NCBI RefSeq assembly: GCF_001593605.1
Contig: NZ_CP012836.1
Location: 2,050,501-2,114,500 of the forward strand
Direction: 5' to 3'
Length of the DNA: 64,000 nt
DNA from: Algoriphagus sanaruensis
GTDB lineage: Bacteria > Bacteroidota > Bacteroidia > Cytophagales > Cyclobacteriaceae
Part shown: piece by piece, positions 54,280-59,927 of the stretch
Numbering within the stretch: the first letter of the stretch is position 1
Layout of the letters: every line of letters begins with the position of its first letter
Made by a program: the position numbers and the translations under genes
The notes under the pieces: model-generated
The model's database searches: none
The model's input: only the letters and a program-made list of their open reading frames with translations
What the model was told of the DNA's origin: nothing

Positions 54280-54993
54280 ATGAAAGAAGAGTATATCAAA
54301 TGGTATTCACCACATCTCCATCGAGATGTACAAATGTTGGTTTTTGGTCATTCTGGATATCCGGTTGTTCTTTTTCCTACTTCCATGGGGTCTTTTCATG
54401 AAAATAAGGACATGGGATTGATTGGATCTGCACAGTGGTTTATCGATGAGGGATTGATTCAGATTTATTGTCCAGAAAGCAATGACAAACAAAGCTTCTA
54501 CAATAAATCAGTATCTCCTTATGAAAGAATCCAACAGCATATTGCCTACGATAAAATGATCTGCCATGAATTGGTAGAGCGAGTACGATTAAACACACCC
54601 CAAGCAAAAGTAGCCCTAGCCGGCTGCAGTTTTGGAGGCTACCATGCTGCAAATTTTGCTTTCAGGCATCCGGGATATGTGAGCCATTTATTCAGTATGA
54701 GTGGGGCTTTTGATATTCGAAGTTTTATGGATGGGTTTCAACATGATGATATTTATTACAATAGTCCGTTGGAATATCTTCCTGGTCTTCAAGATGCTGA
54801 ATTGTGGAAAATGGGAATCGTCTTGGGTACCTCCAACTGGGATATCTGCTTTGATTCCAATCTGAAACTTCACGAAGTTTTAAAACAAAAAAATATTTCA
54901 CATTGGCTGGATGTACGTCAAGACCGACAGCATGACTGGCCGGTCTGGAGAGAAATGTTTCCTCATTACCTCAGCACGATCAAGTTTGATTAA
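54280..54993 (+). CDS. Esterase-like alpha/beta hydrolase of the amide-ligase cluster
   Basis: A 237-residue cytoplasmic alpha/beta hydrolase of the esterase (antigen-85/esterase-D-like) superfamily. The nucleophile elbow is AGCSFGGYHAANFAF (Ser near residue 116). The upstream strand and oxyanion region is YPVVLFPTSMGSFHEN. The histidine is likely in DRQHDWPVWREMFPHYL near the C-terminus. The GCS elbow and the tail differ from common lipases. The gene is followed 113 bp downstream by the ATP-grasp gene on the same strand and is probably the first gene of the cluster. It could hydrolyse or transfer an acyl group on the cluster's product. Confidence 0.8.
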   Translation: MKEEYIKWYSPHLHRDVQMLVFGHSGYPVVLFPTSMGSFHENKDMGLIGSAQWFIDEGLIQIYCPESNDKQSFYNKSVSPYERIQQHIAYDKMICHELVERVRLNTPQAKVALAGCSFGGYHAANFAFRHPGYVSHLFSMSGAFDIRSFMDGFQHDDIYYNSPLEYLPGLQDAELWKMGIVLGTSNWDICFDSNLKLHEVLKQKNISHWLDVRQDRQHDWPVWREMFPHYLSTIKFD

Positions 54994-55106
54994 TTCCGGC
55001 TGGATATAGCCCTCCTTACCAATACTTTAAATTGATCGATAAATTATTTCGATTCCTGTTTGGGTAAGGTTTTGATTAGAAATTTAAAAATGAAATACCT
55101 CGACTA

Positions 55107-56063
55107 ATGAAAAAAATTGGAATTCTTTTTGGCATGGAGGATACTTTTCCTCATGCTTTTGTGGAGCGCGTCAATCAATTAGCGCCAAAAGGTATCGTGG
55201 CGGAGCCAGTCAAGATTGATAAAGTAATTCAAAACGAATTGACCGAATATGCGGTGATTATTGACCGGATTTCACAGGATGTGCCTTTTTATAGAGCTTA
55301 TTTAAAGAATGCTGCCCTCACTGGGACAGCAGTGATCAACAATCCTTTTTGGTGGAGCGCCGATGATAAATTTTTCAATAACTGTCTCGCTGACACCTTA
55401 GGAGTGCCGCTTCCAAAAACGGTGATTTTGCCCTCCGCAGAACATCCTGATGACACTACTTCCAAGTCTTTTAGAAATCTCGTAGCTCCTTTAGATTGGG
55501 AGGGGATATTTAGTTATGTGGGGTTTCCAGCATATATGAAGCCTTATGCAGGGGGAGGTTGGAAAAATGTCTATCGCTTGGAAAACAAAGAGGAGTTTTT
55601 TCAAAAGCATCCGGAAACAGGAAAACTGGTTATGCTCCTACAAGAAGAAATCGTGTTTGATGAATATTTCAGGGTGTATTGCCTAGGAGGAAAAGCTGTC
55701 CGAATTATGGAATACGAACCTAGAAATCCACATCACCTGCGCTATGTGGTAGATCGTGCTCCCTCTTCCAAAAAGCTATTATCAACGGTGAAAGATTATA
55801 CCATCAAGCTTTGTACAGGACTTGGATATGATTTCAATACGGTGGAATTTGCTGTGAGGGATGGAATTCCATATGCCATTGATTTTGGAAATCCTGCACC
55901 GGATGCAGATGTCAATTCGGTTGGTCAGGAGAATTTTGAATGGGTGGTAGAAGAAGCTGCAAAAATGGCCATTGCCTATGCCAAGGCTCAAAAACCTGGA
56001 AAAATGAATTTGACATGGGGGACTTTTGTAAAAGACTCCGTAGAAATGGCGAAACGATTTTAA
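55107..56063 (+). CDS. ATP-grasp ligase of the amide-ligase cluster
   Basis: A 318-residue ATP-grasp protein. The N-terminal pre-ATP-grasp domain starts KKIGILFGMEDTFPHAFVERV. ATP-binding strands include AYMKPYAGGGWKNVYRL (about residues 140-156; glycine loop) and LLQEEIVFDEYFRVYCLGG (about 176-194). The metal-binding acid/Asn triad is in NTVEFAVRDGIPYAIDFGNP (about 243-262). This is a carboxylate-amine ligase of unknown substrate, similar in shape to RimK/glutathione-synthetase-like enzymes. The next gene (GCS2) begins 10 bp after its stop, so they are co-translated in an operon. Confidence 0.85.
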   Translation: MKKIGILFGMEDTFPHAFVERVNQLAPKGIVAEPVKIDKVIQNELTEYAVIIDRISQDVPFYRAYLKNAALTGTAVINNPFWWSADDKFFNNCLADTLGVPLPKTVILPSAEHPDDTTSKSFRNLVAPLDWEGIFSYVGFPAYMKPYAGGGWKNVYRLENKEEFFQKHPETGKLVMLLQEEIVFDEYFRVYCLGGKAVRIMEYEPRNPHHLRYVVDRAPSSKKLLSTVKDYTIKLCTGLGYDFNTVEFAVRDGIPYAIDFGNPAPDADVNSVGQENFEWVVEEAAKMAIAYAKAQKPGKMNLTWGTFVKDSVEMAKRF

Positions 56064-56073
56064 GCCCTGAATT

Positions 56074-57192
56074 ATGTCCATTGCATTGAAAAAGCTGCCC
56101 AAATTTACCCTAGGTGTAGAGGAGGAATACATGATTTTGGACCCAACTACTCGTGATCTTCGATCCCATATGTCCAAGATCGTAGAAGGAGGGAAGATTC
56201 AGCTTCGAGAACAAGTAAAGGCTGAAATGCATCAGTCTGTGGTCGAAGTCGGCACGAATATCTGCCAAAACATTGCAGAGGCAAGGAAAGAAGTTTCTTT
56301 CCTCAGAAGAAAGATTGATGAATTAGCACGTGCTCAAGGCCTGGTAGCGGGGGCATCAAGTACCCACCCCTTTGCCAAATGGCAAGATCAGGAAATTACC
56401 GATGATCCTAGGTATCACAATATTGTCAATGAACTGAAGGATATAGCGCGATCCAACCTGATTTTTGGGCTTCATGTCCATGTCGGGATTGAGAGTAGGG
56501 AGATTGCTCTTCAATTGATGAATCAGGCTTGCTATTTTCTTCCTCATATTTATGCCTTGACAACCAATTCTCCCTTTTGGGAAGGCCGTAACACTGGTTT
56601 CAAGGCATTTCGGGCTAAGGTCTTTGCCAAATTTCCACGAACTGGATTACCAGAGTATTTCGACTCTGTTCAGTCCTATGATAATTTTCTTGAAATATTG
56701 GTCAAGACGAATTGCATAGACAATCCTAAGAAGATATGGTGGGATTTGCGCATGCACCCATTTTTCTCCACCATCGAATTTAGAATTTGCGACATGTGTC
56801 TTACCGTTGATGAGACGATCTGCGTGGTAGCCTTGATTCAAGCTGTGGTAGCTAAATTGTACAAGTTGTTGATGAGTAATACCAGCTTCAACATTTATAG
56901 GATTGCGTTGATTCGTGAAAATAAATTCCGTGCAGCTAGGAATGGAATTGAGGGATTGCTGATAGACTTTGGGAAGAAAGTGGAAGTTCCAACCCGTGAA
57001 TTGATTCTTGAACTTCTTGATTTTGTGGATGATGTTGTCGATGAATTAGGAAGCAGAGAAGAAATCAATTATGTGCATCAAATTCTTGAGCGAGGCACCG
57101 GTGCAGATCAACAGCTCGCTGTTTTTGAACAAACAGGTAGTCTAGAATCTGTGGTAGATTTTATTACTTCAAAGTTTACCGAGGGAATTTGA
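56074..57192 (+). CDS. Carboxylate-amine ligase, GCS2 / YbdK type
   Basis: A 372-residue member of the glutamate-cysteine ligase type 2 (YbdK-like) family, which shares its fold with glutamine synthetase. The ATP/metal-binding start is FTLGVEEEYMILDP (residues 11-24), then EMHQSVVEVGTNIC and IFGLHVHVGIESRE (about 129-142). ELDPS-type block WWDLRMHPFFSTIEFRICDM completes the active site. Family members make gamma-glutamylcysteine weakly or act on unknown amines. Presence beside two ATP-grasp genes points to a peptide-like product. Its TGA stop is in the same frame as the next gene's start, with 14 sense codons between. Confidence 0.9.
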   Translation: MSIALKKLPKFTLGVEEEYMILDPTTRDLRSHMSKIVEGGKIQLREQVKAEMHQSVVEVGTNICQNIAEARKEVSFLRRKIDELARAQGLVAGASSTHPFAKWQDQEITDDPRYHNIVNELKDIARSNLIFGLHVHVGIESREIALQLMNQACYFLPHIYALTTNSPFWEGRNTGFKAFRAKVFAKFPRTGLPEYFDSVQSYDNFLEILVKTNCIDNPKKIWWDLRMHPFFSTIEFRICDMCLTVDETICVVALIQAVVAKLYKLLMSNTSFNIYRIALIRENKFRAARNGIEGLLIDFGKKVEVPTRELILELLDFVDDVVDELGSREEINYVHQILERGTGADQQLAVFEQTGSLESVVDFITSKFTEGI

Positions 57193-57234
57193 TGGATTGA
57201 GTACCTTTGCTTCAGACTTAACACCTTATTTGAA

Positions 57235-58065
57235 GTGGCAAAAAGAAAAGTGAATTTGGCGATTTTGGACATGTATGATGGGGAGCCCAATCAGGGTATG
57301 CGCTGTATTCATGATATTTTGTCCAAATTTTCGGACTCGATTTCCTTTCGTGAGTTTGACGTAAGGGGTAAATCGGAGATTCCAGAGATTAGAGATTTTG
57401 ATCTTTTTATTTCCACCGGAGGTCCTGGTAACCCATTGGAAGGTGATGGAGTTTGGGATTTGAAGTACAATGATTTTTTGGACCAAGTCTGGATATGGAA
57501 TCAAAATCATAGTCAGAAAAAATACTTGCTTTTGATTTGTCATTCCTTTCAAATGGCATGCAAGCATTTTGGATTAGGAGAAATCACAAAACGTAAATCA
57601 ACTTCCTTTGGTGTGATGACGGTGCACAAAACACCGGATGGAATGCAGGATGATTTACTTCAGAATTTGGATAATCCCTTTTGGGCAGTTGACTCTCGAG
57701 ATTTTCAAGTGGTTCAGCCTAATCCTAGAAAGTTCAAGCATCTTGGATCTAAAATAATTGCTTTGGAAAAAATCCGTAATCATGTCGAATATGAGCGGGC
57801 AATTATGGCTATCCGGTTTTCAGATGAAATCGTCGGAACTCAATTTCACCCTGAAGCTGATCCGGTTAGTTTCCTTGAACATTTGAAAAAGCCAATGGTG
57901 AAGGAAAAAATTATTGAGCTCAAAGGGAAAGCTAAGTTTCGCGAAATGTTGGAAAACTTGGTGGATGAATCAAAGATTTACCGGACTAATGAAACTCTGA
58001 TCCCGAATTTTTTGCAACAATCGCTCTGGAAAATTAAAGCAGGTCAGGCGCCTTCATTTATTTGA
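57235..58065 (+). CDS. Stand-alone class I glutamine amidotransferase-like protein
   Basis: A 276-residue class I GATase-type protein without a fused or adjacent synthetase of the usual pathways. The nucleophile is in LLICHSFQMACKHFG (Cys near residue 102, in the place of the GxCxGxQ motif). The His-Glu pair is in GTQFHPEADP (about 201-210). The oxyanion strand STGGPGNPLEGDG is at about residue 61. It may release ammonia from glutamine or hydrolyse a gamma-glutamyl bond in the cluster's product. The start is GTG at 57235: no ATG is in frame after the upstream stop. The next gene starts 1 bp after its TGA. Confidence 0.85.
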   Translation: MAKRKVNLAILDMYDGEPNQGMRCIHDILSKFSDSISFREFDVRGKSEIPEIRDFDLFISTGGPGNPLEGDGVWDLKYNDFLDQVWIWNQNHSQKKYLLLICHSFQMACKHFGLGEITKRKSTSFGVMTVHKTPDGMQDDLLQNLDNPFWAVDSRDFQVVQPNPRKFKHLGSKIIALEKIRNHVEYERAIMAIRFSDEIVGTQFHPEADPVSFLEHLKKPMVKEKIIELKGKAKFREMLENLVDESKIYRTNETLIPNFLQQSLWKIKAGQAPSFI

Positions 58066-58066
58066 T

Positions 58067-59257
58067 ATGATTGAAGAAATAAGAGCAAGATTCAATACCG
58101 AATTTTCAGTAGAGAAATACCAAGCATTTTTGAAAGATGTAGGTCGAGATTTTGGTTTTTCGCCGACATTTCGGATTGCTGAAACCCCTTTCTTTATCCC
58201 CAAAAAGTTAGAAAAGCAACTGCTTGAAGCTTGTGAACAAGTGTTTGATTTAATCCGACAGCCAAATTTCAAGCAATTAACACAGCGTGCCATTGAATTA
58301 AACCCATCAGTACCAAATGAAGATGGTCACACTCAATTTTTGGCGATAGATTTTGGAATTTGTGAACAAAATGGGGACATCGTACCTAAGCTGATAGAAG
58401 CCCAAGGTTTCCCATCAATTTTTAATTTTCAATTTAACCTGCACAGAAAGTTTCTAGAATTTTACCCTTTTCTGGAATCATTAAGTCCTTATCCTGAGGG
58501 AATGGATGCCAAGTCATATCTTCAAATTCTTCGCGAAGTTGTCTTAGGGGATTATCAGCCTGAGGAGGTTGTTCTGCTTGAAATAGAACCTGAAAAGCAG
58601 AATACCAAAATTGATTTCTATTACACAAAGCGTGATTTAGGAATCGAATATGTTTGTATTACCCAAATCCAGAAGGTGGATCGAAAACTTTTCTACCAAA
58701 ATAGAGAAGGAAAAATGATCCAAATCAAGCGAATTTATAATCGGGTAATCTTTGATGAACTTGAATTGAGGAAGGATTTAAAACTGAATTTCAGCTTCCA
58801 AGATGATTTGGAAGTAGAGTGGGCAGGCCATCCCAATTGGTATTCTAGAATTTCAAAATTTATTTTGCCATTCCTAAGTGGGCCTTACTTTATAGAAAGT
58901 AAGCTTTTGAGTGAGTTTGATCGCATACCCGAGGATTTGGAGAATTATGTTCTAAAACCTCTCTTTTCTTTTTCAGGCTCTGGAGTGGTTTTCAATGTGA
59001 CTCAGGAGGATATCGATGCAGTTCAAAATCCAGATTTATATATTCTTCAGAAAAAAGTGAACTATGCACCTGTGATTAAGTCTCCAACCGGAAATGTAAA
59101 GGTGGAAGTTCGGCTACTTTGTTTATGGCCTGAAAAAGCTGAGGCTCCACAAGTGGTTGGAAATCTTGTCCGCTTAAGTAGAGGGGATATGATTGGGGTG
59201 AAGTTTAATAAAGACAAAGATTGGGTAGGTGGTTCCATTGGACTCTTTGAGAAATAA
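58067..59257 (+). CDS. Divergent ATP-grasp-like ligase of the amide-ligase cluster
   Basis: A 396-residue protein that I assign tentatively to the ATP-grasp group. YVLKPLFSFSGSGVVFNV (about residues 293-310) looks like the ATP-binding strand and glycine loop. LYILQKKVNYAPVI and VEVRLLCLW (about 325-360) look like the following strands. An N-terminal region with FLAIDFGIC and KLIEAQGFPSIFNFQ (about 85-120) resembles the glutathionylspermidine-synthase type arrangement. A clear metal-binding N/E set is not seen. The start ATG lies 1 bp after the GATase stop; the stop overlaps the terminator. Confidence 0.7.
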   Translation: MIEEIRARFNTEFSVEKYQAFLKDVGRDFGFSPTFRIAETPFFIPKKLEKQLLEACEQVFDLIRQPNFKQLTQRAIELNPSVPNEDGHTQFLAIDFGICEQNGDIVPKLIEAQGFPSIFNFQFNLHRKFLEFYPFLESLSPYPEGMDAKSYLQILREVVLGDYQPEEVVLLEIEPEKQNTKIDFYYTKRDLGIEYVCITQIQKVDRKLFYQNREGKMIQIKRIYNRVIFDELELRKDLKLNFSFQDDLEVEWAGHPNWYSRISKFILPFLSGPYFIESKLLSEFDRIPEDLENYVLKPLFSFSGSGVVFNVTQEDIDAVQNPDLYILQKKVNYAPVIKSPTGNVKVEVRLLCLWPEKAEAPQVVGNLVRLSRGDMIGVKFNKDKDWVGGSIGLFEK

Positions 59258-59284
59258 AAAAAGGCGGTTAACCCGCCTTTTTTT
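59256..59284. terminator. Bidirectional terminator between amide-ligase cluster and pyrE
   Basis: The 12-bp arms AAAAAAAGGCGG (59256-59267) and CCGCCTTTTTTT (59273-59284) are perfectly complementary around a 5-base loop. It serves the plus-strand cluster and the convergent pyrE. Confidence 0.92.
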
Positions 59285-59927
59285 ATTGCATCCAAGTGGA
59301 CGGTGATTTTCGCCATTCCCCAAGTGAATTTAAAGCTTCTGGGGTAATGTAATTTGTTTTTACTGCCTCAGGAAGAAGGGCGTCATAGTGACTCAAACAA
59401 ATTAGCTTGATTCCTGCCTCTTCAAAGTTTTTTGTAGCTACGTCGAAGCCATAGCTGAAGATTGCCACCATTCCCATTACCTCAAAGCCAGCTTTTTTCA
59501 AATCCTCAGCCGCTTTTAAGGAACTTCCTCCAGTCGATACAAGGTCTTCCACGACCACAACTTTTTGTCCTGGAGTCACTTTACCTTCAATCATATTTTC
59601 CATACCATGTCCCTTAGGTTTAGATCGAACATAAAGGAAGGGGAGGCTTAATTCATTAGCGATAAGCGCGCCTTGTGGTATGCCTGCGGTGGCTACGCCT
59701 GCGATTGCTTCCACTTGAGGGAAAAAATGCTGAACCGATTTGACCAAATTTTCTTTGATCAAATTTCTAACTTCTGGAAAGGAAAGAGAAAGTCGATTAT
59801 CACAGTAAATAGGGGATTTCCATCCAGATGCCCACGTAAATGGTTTGTCTGGTTGAAGTCGAATAGCTTCAATTTCGAGTAGTTTTTTAGCTACTTCTGC
59901 CGCGATGCTTGCATTGAGAATTTCCAT
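59283..59927 (-). CDS. pyrE: Orotate phosphoribosyltransferase
   Basis: PyrE joins orotate to PRPP to give OMP in pyrimidine synthesis. The PRPP-binding motif is KVVVVEDLVSTGGSSLKAAE (about residues 117-136). The N-terminal substrate-binding region has PFTWASGWKSPIYCDNRLSL and the mobile loop YVRSKPKGHGMENMIEG. At 214 residues it is a normal, complete enzyme. The start is the ATG at 59927 (MEILNASIAAEV). It is a single-gene unit ending at the shared terminator. It precedes the divergent Nudix gene. Confidence 0.95.
   Translation of the reverse strand: MEILNASIAAEVAKKLLEIEAIRLQPDKPFTWASGWKSPIYCDNRLSLSFPEVRNLIKENLVKSVQHFFPQVEAIAGVATAGIPQGALIANELSLPFLYVRSKPKGHGMENMIEGKVTPGQKVVVVEDLVSTGGSSLKAAEDLKKAGFEVMGMVAIFSYGFDVATKNFEEAGIKLICLSHYDALLPEAVKTNYITPEALNSLGEWRKSPSTWMQ

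What the first reader, a model, noticed from the sequence alone, without database searches (positions are those of the whole stretch)
54280..59257. Five-gene amide-ligase cluster of unknown product
Seen: an esterase-like alpha/beta hydrolase, an ATP-grasp protein, a GCS2/YbdK-type ligase, a stand-alone class I GATase and a divergent ATP-grasp-like protein on one strand. Gaps are 113, 10, 42 and 1 bp, and one terminator ends the run. Known: ATP-grasp and GCS2 enzymes join carboxylates to amines with ATP, and surveys of amidoligases have noted such families together. I cannot check whether this exact set has been described. Inference: the genes make a small peptide-like or gamma-glutamyl metabolite, with the GATase and the hydrolase trimming or modifying it. 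No known pathway (glutathione, ophthalmate, mycothiol, lasso peptide) fits this set.
Basis: partly seen in the sequence, partly recalled or inferred. Interest (0 to 1): 0.82.

Follow-up and report, generated by a model that had tools for sequence, protein, structure and literature searches.

The report
Conserved glutamyl-amide ligase gene cluster
Five neighbouring genes found together in many related bacteria look like a small assembly line that joins amino acids or amines into an unknown glutathione-like molecule, so they mark a metabolic pathway whose product still has to be found.

Summary
In detail: five genes on one strand, gaps 113, 10, 42 and 1 bp, then a hairpin. They are an alpha/beta hydrolase (g1), a RimK-fold ATP-grasp (g2), a YbdK-type GCS2 ligase (g3), a class I GATase with intact Cys-His-Glu (g4) and g5. 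g5 has no Pfam hit, but its model has the permuted ATP-grasp fold of glutathione synthetase, glutathionylspermidine synthetase and YgiC/YjfC. In 296 genomes the genes co-occur strongly; the block probably passed between Algoriphagus kin and Flavobacterium. Two slots are exchangeable: another permuted ATP-grasp replaces g5 (15 of 15 genomes with g2 and g4 but no g5; 0 of 10 with g5); an M29 peptidase takes g4's place in 5 genomes, and an Amidohydro_3-type protein abuts g5 in 11 others. I therefore read g4 as a hydrolase. Best reading: an intracellular, NRPS-independent route to a gamma-glutamyl pseudopeptide or amide, probably not a thiol. The product is unknown, and g3 and g4 each occur without the other. 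The key survey (Iyer 2009) could not be read here.

The parts
54280..54993 (+). g1: cytosolic-looking alpha/beta hydrolase, 237 aa
   Evidence: PF00756 29.3 bits (cut-off 22), PF00561 26.5 bits (cut-off 25.8); G115-x-S117-F118-G119 elbow, D188, D211 and H218 conserved in at least 97% of 54 rows; strongest 19-residue hydropathy 0.97
55107..56063 (+). g2: RimK-fold ATP-grasp ligase, 318 aa
56074..57192 (+). g3: GCS2 / YbdK-type carboxylate-amine ligase, 372 aa
   Evidence: PF04107 193 bits; NF010039 518.7 and TIGR02050 279.9 bits over cut-off; E. coli YbdK 1r8g E 3.6e-50
57235..58065 (+). g4: stand-alone class I glutamine-amidotransferase-fold protein, 276 aa
   Evidence: PF00117; C102, Q106, H205, E207 and the GGPG loop invariant in 12 diverse rows, with an unusual ICHSFQ elbow, and in at least 97% of 59 rows
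58067..59257 (+). g5: circularly permuted ATP-grasp ligase of the glutathione synthetase / glutathionylspermidine synthetase / YgiC class, 396 aa
59253..59287 (.). terminator hairpin between the cluster and the convergent pyrE-like gene
   Evidence: sequence and fold -19.1 kcal/mol; not listed by the consensus scan

Best explanation
The cluster is one form of a modular pathway of Bacteroidota that builds a small intracellular amide-linked molecule without a ribosome, carrier protein or NRPS. Most likely steps (all chemistry inferred): g3 activates the gamma-carboxyl of glutamate, or a similar acid, and joins it to an amine or amino acid; g5, with the fold of glutathione synthetase and peptide-polyamine ligases, activates the free carboxylate of that product and adds a second amine; g2, a RimK-fold ligase, adds a further acidic residue or starts the chain; g4 hydrolyses one amide bond, probably a gamma-glutamyl one, to release or recycle the product; g1, a serine hydrolase, removes an acyl or ester group. 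Shown here: gene content, folds, conserved catalytic residues, co-occurrence, probable block transfer, and exchange of the g4 and g5 slots for other enzymes. Inferred: substrates, order and product.
For: Co-occurrence in 296 genomes: g2-g5 together in 88, g2 only 19, g5 only 3, neither 186, p 6e-52; g3-g5 86/16/5/189; all five in 50, g1-g2-g3-g5 in 32, none in 157. Of 80 named loci, the best by g2 identity and so biased to close kin, 67 hold g1-g2-g3-g4-g5 contiguous and in order. Block transfer: in the g2 and g5 trees 10 Flavobacterium rows and 14 rows of Algoriphagus and kin form one set of 24 (SH-aLRT 100), without the other Cyclobacteriaceae; all five window proteins are closer to Flavobacterium than to those (for example g4 0.63 against 0.46, g5 0.63 against 0.49). 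g5 has the GSH-synthetase/GspS/YgiC fold, g2 the RimK fold, g3 is YbdK-type. The g5 slot is exchanged for a CP_ATPgrasp_2-type protein in 15 of 15 g2+g4+ genomes without g5 and in 0 of 10 with g5. An M29 peptidase sits between g3 and g5 in 5 loci; that M29 type (at least 59% identity) is in 6 of 36 g4-less and 0 of 44 g4-bearing genomes (p 0.0065). An Amidohydro_3-type protein abuts g5 in 11 g4-less genomes (one of the 11 family-tested). No ORF of 15 aa or more lies in the internal gaps. Published precedent for such ligases making amides without an NRPS: Cp1B and YgiC/YjfC (PMC12568646, passages read).
Against: g3 and g4 occur without each other: 36 genomes with g5 have no g4, also with a g4 profile (0 of 40; control 11 of 11 positives and 0 of 7 g4-less), and 12 genomes with g4 have no g3 at E 1e-10. 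So strict 'g3 adds gamma-Glu, g4 removes it' cannot be general. In the 15 CP-type genomes g3 is absent from the cluster; 7 have a g3 relative elsewhere. In 35 of 91 genomes with g5 no partner lies within 6 kb of it in the stretch fetched. 30 of 36 g4-less genomes have no M29 of the operon type, and Amidohydro_3 also occurs in or beside the cluster in two genomes that have g4. Profile comparison of g5 and CP is weak (probability 21%, E 0.001). No activity of any of these proteins was found in print, and the folds do not fix substrates.
Confidence: 0.5

Rival explanations
1. g4 is a true amidotransferase subunit: it takes ammonia from glutamine and hands it to g5 or g2, so the product ends in a primary carboxamide.
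For: g4 keeps the Cys-His-Glu triad, the oxyanion GGPG loop and the Gln at C+4 typical of class I GATases (what is typical is recalled); g4 and g5 are 1 bp apart in the window.
Against: In 4 families the same slot holds an M29 metallopeptidase and in 2 others an Amidohydro_3-type protein abuts g5; such enzymes would not be expected to replace an ammonia channel. In all 8 genomes of family f16 with g5, g4 is present but far from it, on another contig in 7.
Confidence: 0.2
2. The cluster is catabolic: an amine is gamma-glutamylated so that it can be processed, and g4 then releases the product, as in the Puu putrescine route.
For: Ligase plus class I GATase is the PuuA/PuuD layout (recalled). A sodium:solute symporter lies next to or in frame with g5 in 3 genomes of family f28 (PF00474 tested in one). 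Proteins that I read as short-chain dehydrogenases lie within 1.5 kb of a cluster gene in 5 genomes of 5 families, and Gfo/Idh-type oxidoreductases in 3 genomes of 3 families (large superfamilies, positions vary). Genes that I read as ethanolamine permease and EutB/EutC lie between the two halves of the cluster in one genome (L071; not family-tested).
Against: Three ATP-dependent ligases; no oxidoreductase holds a fixed place in the clusters; the symporter beside g5 and the ethanolamine link are each confined to one lineage.
Confidence: 0.2
3. The ligases modify a protein or a ribosomal precursor (RimK-like glutamylation, LysW-type carrier or graspetide).
Against: No ORF of 15 aa or more lies in the four internal gaps, and upstream of g1 only a 21-aa + strand ORF. 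The upstream test on kin loci was not conclusive: some + strand ORFs are shared by up to 10 loci, and I did not resolve whether these are parts of upstream genes. GCS2 and GSH-synthetase-fold partners act on small molecules (recalled).
Confidence: 0.08
4. The cluster makes an alternative low-molecular-weight thiol that stands in for glutathione or bacillithiol.
For: GCS2 plus a GSH-synthetase-fold ligase resembles GshA plus eukaryotic-type GS.
Against: The bacillithiol gene bshC is in 79 of 80 genomes searched: 39 of 40 with g5 and 40 of 40 without, the window's own genome included; 78 of 80 over the family cut-off (other bsh genes not searched). g3 scores far below the GshA models (TIGR02048 54 of 249 bits, TIGR01436 18 of 463).
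Confidence: 0.05

Closest known systems
Glutathione / homoglutathione biosynthesis (GCL plus eukaryotic-type glutathione synthetase)
   Different: g3 fails the GshA models and passes the YbdK and NF010039 ones; g5 shares about 14% identity with GS; an extra RimK-fold ligase and two hydrolases; hosts carry bshC.
Glutathionylspermidine synthetase/amidase and the YgiC/YjfC peptide-spermidine ligases
   Same: Fold of g5; the CP variant's nearest solved structure is the putative glutathionylspermidine synthase 3n6x, also g5's top Foldseek hit. Ligase paired with a Cys amidase.
   Different: g4 is a class I GATase fold, not the amidase of GspSA; no polyamine activity tested; sequence match to YgiC only E 0.035. 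The YgiC/YjfC activity is known to me from its citation in PMC12568646.
gamma-Glutamyl handle pathways: ergothioneine EgtA/EgtC, Puu PuuA/PuuD, butirosin BtrJ/BtrG (recalled, no call)
   Same: Logic of a gamma-glutamyl ligase plus a gamma-glutamyl-cleaving enzyme.
   Different: g3 and g4 each occur without the other; EgtC is a class II amidotransferase fold (recalled).
NRPS-independent amide natural products: E-64 (Cp1B/Cp1D), dapdiamides (DdaF/DdaG) (PMC12568646, passages read)
   Different: No warhead-forming oxygenase or adenylating amide synthetase among the five genes; conserved across many families of one phylum.
Amidoligase gene neighbourhoods surveyed by Iyer et al. 2009 (Mol Biosyst 5:1636; not readable here)
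   Same: A study of ATP-grasp and GS-like amidoligases, by its title (seen in a reference list); its abstract, as I recall it, treats gene neighbourhoods and peptidases of unrelated folds.
   Different: Cannot be compared; it may already list this neighbourhood.

Membership tests
YbdK-type carboxylate-amine ligases (GCS2 superfamily), for g3 | score over the curated cut-off of TIGR02050 / NF010039 | tested here: met
   279.9 against 176.4 bits and 518.7 against 371 bits; YbdK 1r8g E 3.6e-50
Glutamate-cysteine ligase of the glutathione pathway, for g3 | score over the GshA GCS2-type models TIGR02048 / TIGR01436 | tested here: not met
   54 against 249 bits; 17.7 against 463 bits
Circularly permuted ATP-grasp ligases of the GSH synthetase / GspS / YgiC class, for g5 | whole-chain fold match | tested here: met
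Circularly permuted ATP-grasp ligases of the GSH synthetase / GspS / YgiC class, for g5 | significant sequence match to a known member or Pfam model | tested here: not met
   no Pfam hit; YgiC E 0.035 with a profile
RimK-type glutamate ligases, for g2 | TIGR00768 over cut-off | tested here: not met
Class I glutamine amidotransferases, for g4 | PF00117 over cut-off with Cys-His-Glu triad | tested here: met
   31.5 against 22.8 bits; C102, H205, E207 invariant
Class I glutamine amidotransferases, for g4 | ammonia transfer to a partner | not testable with these tools
   needs an enzyme assay; exchange with M29 speaks against it
Glutathione pathway (whole cluster) | makes GSH as the host's thiol | tested here: inconclusive
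   bshC present in the own genome and 78 of 79 others; GshB/GshF not searched
Graspetide / carrier-peptide systems | a precursor or carrier ORF in the cluster | tested here: inconclusive
   no ORF of 15 aa or more in the internal gaps and only a 21-aa + strand ORF just upstream; small ORFs shared upstream in kin loci were not resolved
Known anti-phage defence systems | hit to a PADLOC model | tested here: not met
   0 of 5 proteins at E 0.001

The most novel reading that the evidence does not exclude
About a third of sampled Bacteroidota genomes make an undescribed, non-thiol, glutathione-like pseudopeptide by a modular pathway whose ligases and trimming hydrolases have been swapped for unrelated enzymes several times, so that the conserved thing is the metabolite rather than the enzyme set.
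Probability: 0.35. Interest if true: 0.82.

Novelty: new variant of a known kind. Interest (0 to 1): 0.62.

Why it matters
If right, a widespread group of bacteria shares a conserved small metabolite for which I found no description, made by a compact set of five enzymes that can be expressed and assayed at once. The exchange of a GATase for a metallopeptidase in the same slot gives a concrete clue to the reaction and a direct test. The ligases may also be useful amide-forming biocatalysts.

Tried and rejected
Chance clustering: rejected by co-occurrence, order and probable block transfer. Fisher values are not corrected for shared ancestry. The searches used E 1e-3 for g5 and 1e-10 for the other four.

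Alternative-thiol idea: judged unlikely because bshC is in 79 of 80 genomes. Defence system: no PADLOC hit. Riboswitch or RNA regulator: nothing over gathering score in the window stretch (two sub-threshold sRNA hits at the terminator), and one SRP RNA only in eight kin loci. Plasmid carriage: g2 has no match in 72,556 plasmid records; the CP ligase has 12 distant ones at under 30% identity, 3 of them annotated as glutathionylspermidine synthase family.

g5-CP homology by sequence: weak; argued instead from a shared nearest structure. Sequence search of the PDB with the g2 and g4 profiles gave only generic or weak hits. Spread beyond the phylum was not measured: the one genome-contig scan kept the best 80 of at least 584 relatives; their titles are of Bacteroidota, with one Ignavibacteriaceae MAG.

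A crude hydropathy scan gave 2.0 over 19 residues in g3 (from 249), above the usual 1.6 for a membrane segment, but inside the GCS2 domain; the other four reach 1.02 at most.

Literature: searches listed no paper whose title or abstract start describes this cluster (one search found none; searches show capped lists). These listings are all I saw of the papers, except passages of PMC4431377, PMC8939145 and PMC12568646. Iyer 2009 is not held, so priority cannot be excluded.
Full report
WHAT IS THERE. A hairpin at 59253-59287 lies between the last gene and a convergent pyrE-like gene; the consensus scan did not list it. The window lies in a single-contig 3.88-Mb genome whose nearest named relatives for g2 are Algoriphagus (96% to A. 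litoralis).

CO-OCCURRENCE. The same 296 genomes of the phylum were searched with each protein: g5 in 91, g2 in 107, g3 in 102, g4 in 70, g1 in 124 (many of the g1 hits are under 40% identity). Patterns: all five 50; g1-g2-g3-g5 32; g1-g2-g4 8; g1-g2-g3-g4 7; g1-g2-g4-g5 4; only g1 20; only g3 9; other patterns 9; none 157. Sum 296. Among 91 genomes with g5, 56 have at least one partner within 6 kb on the same strand, 26 have all four, and 35 have none in the stretch fetched (some stretches end at a contig end), so the link also holds where the genes are scattered. Of the 80 named loci kept (best by identity, so close kin), 67 have g1-g2-g3-g4-g5 contiguous and in order, 2 more with a longer g1-g2 gap, and one has g2-g3-M29-g5.

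PROBABLY MOVES AS A BLOCK. Trees were built from 59 rows: the window, 30 rows of the phylum sample and 28 rows from 30 chosen of the 80 named loci (quick method, no mixture model, no bootstrap). In the g2 and g5 trees 10 Flavobacterium rows group with 14 rows of Algoriphagus, Belliella, Indibacter, Aquiflexum and Pararhodonellum in one set of 24 (SH-aLRT 100), with other Cyclobacteriaceae outside; for g3 the listing did not show such a starred set. For all five proteins the window is closer to 8 named Flavobacterium rows than to 4 rows of those other Cyclobacteriaceae: g1 0.73/0.53, g2 0.83/0.71, g3 0.76/0.62, g4 0.63/0.46, g5 0.63/0.49. No control gene was compared, so transfer is the likely but not the only reading.

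SLOT EXCHANGES. (a) Where g2 and g4 occur without g5, a 450-480 aa protein of CP_ATPgrasp_2 type sits next to g2, between g2 and g4 in 14 of 15 genomes (in G290 g4 is on another contig) (two of them family-tested, one just over and one just under the PF14403 cut-off). A profile search found it in 15 of 15 such genomes, in 0 of 10 genomes with g5, and with a weak partial hit in 1 of 4 genomes having only a distant g2 (the Fisher test used 9 rather than 10). (b) In 5 genomes of 4 families g4 is absent and a Peptidase_M29 protein sits between g3 and g5. That M29 type is in 6 of 36 g4-less and 0 of 44 g4-bearing genomes; more distant M29 paralogues (26-36%) were found in 10 g4-bearing genomes. (c) In 11 g4-less genomes (9 of family f24, 2 of f27) an Amidohydro_3-type protein abuts or overlaps the start of g5 (L076 family-tested); the same family also lies inside or beside the cluster in two f5 genomes that do have g4. 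Three unrelated C-N or peptide hydrolase families beside g5 suggest that hydrolysis, not ammonia supply, is what that position needs. This is inference.

EXTENSIONS. A second esterase family follows g4 in 9 CP-type loci. Another PF00756-type esterase is divergent to the start of the cluster in 14 genomes of 5 families (one family-tested). A fourth ligase (ATP-grasp_4), with an M17 aminopeptidase, lies beside the cluster in 5 genomes of family f6 and one of f7, and without M17 in one f8 and three f18 genomes; of the 80 named loci 13 show it, 11 of them with M17. The window's genome has this ligase about 0.7 Mb away, at 57% identity; it is in 17 of the 30 genomes searched. Neighbours that recur in at least 3 families within 1.5 kb also include proteins that I read as short-chain dehydrogenases (5 genomes, 5 families), an ABC-transporter ATPase (5 genomes, 3 families) and Gfo/Idh-type oxidoreductases (3 genomes, 3 families); these are large superfamilies and hold no fixed place.

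HOW IT MAY WORK. All three ligases have folds used on glutamate or gamma-glutamyl substrates, and g4 has the fold that binds glutamine or gamma-glutamyl groups (established knowledge of these families, recalled). I therefore favour an intracellular gamma-glutamyl pseudopeptide or amide made by g3, g5 and g2 and trimmed by g4, with g1 removing an ester or acyl group. The wide spread, and the absence of a transporter or regulator with a fixed place beyond single lineages, speak for a standing metabolite rather than a secreted antibiotic. Against a simple add-and-remove scheme, g3 and g4 each occur without the other. The product, substrates and order are not shown.

COMPARISON AND NOVELTY. The nearest described things are glutathione-type synthesis, glutathionylspermidine and YgiC/YjfC ligation, and E-64-type stand-alone ATP-grasp chemistry (PMC12568646, passages read). 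No paper describing this cluster appeared in the listings, but the 2009 amidoligase survey could not be read. I rate it a new variant of a known kind.

Noticed in passing
L151 4637-7240, L164 5484-6950, L088 5984-7369 (family f28): A sodium:solute symporter lies directly upstream of g5 (L088, 18 bp, PF00474) or, by my reading, in one open frame with it (L151, 867 aa; in L164 only the transporter's tail shares the frame). This may hint at an imported substrate.
   Followed up: partly
L071 6591-11597 (G253): Genes that I read as an ethanolamine permease and EutB/EutC lie between the g4-g5 and g2-g3 halves on the other strand; a blastp against the ORFs of the loci fetched found no second case. 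Names are my reading, not family-tested.
   Followed up: partly
L055, L122, L132, L136, L138, L053: M17 aminopeptidase plus ATP-grasp_4 ligase beside the five genes, which suggests a wider peptide-making and peptide-cutting set.
   Followed up: partly
L039, L040, L041 (family f18): An Asparaginase_2 (isoaspartyl-peptidase family) gene lies next to the extra ligase of CP-type clusters (PF01112 264 bits in L041).
   Followed up: no
window 58067-59257 against 55107-56063: g5 evolves much faster than g2: mean identity to 8 Algoriphagus rows 0.71 against 0.92. Could mean a shifting amine specificity.
   Followed up: no
L048 4955-7692 (G160): A distant g2 relative (45%) sits beside two squalene/phytoene synthase genes instead of the other ligases.
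   Followed up: no
L130 (G154): A cluster of genus group g12 (the Flavobacterium-like group) that keeps g3-g4-g5 but has no g1 or g2 next to them, nor in the genome at E 1e-10.
   Followed up: no
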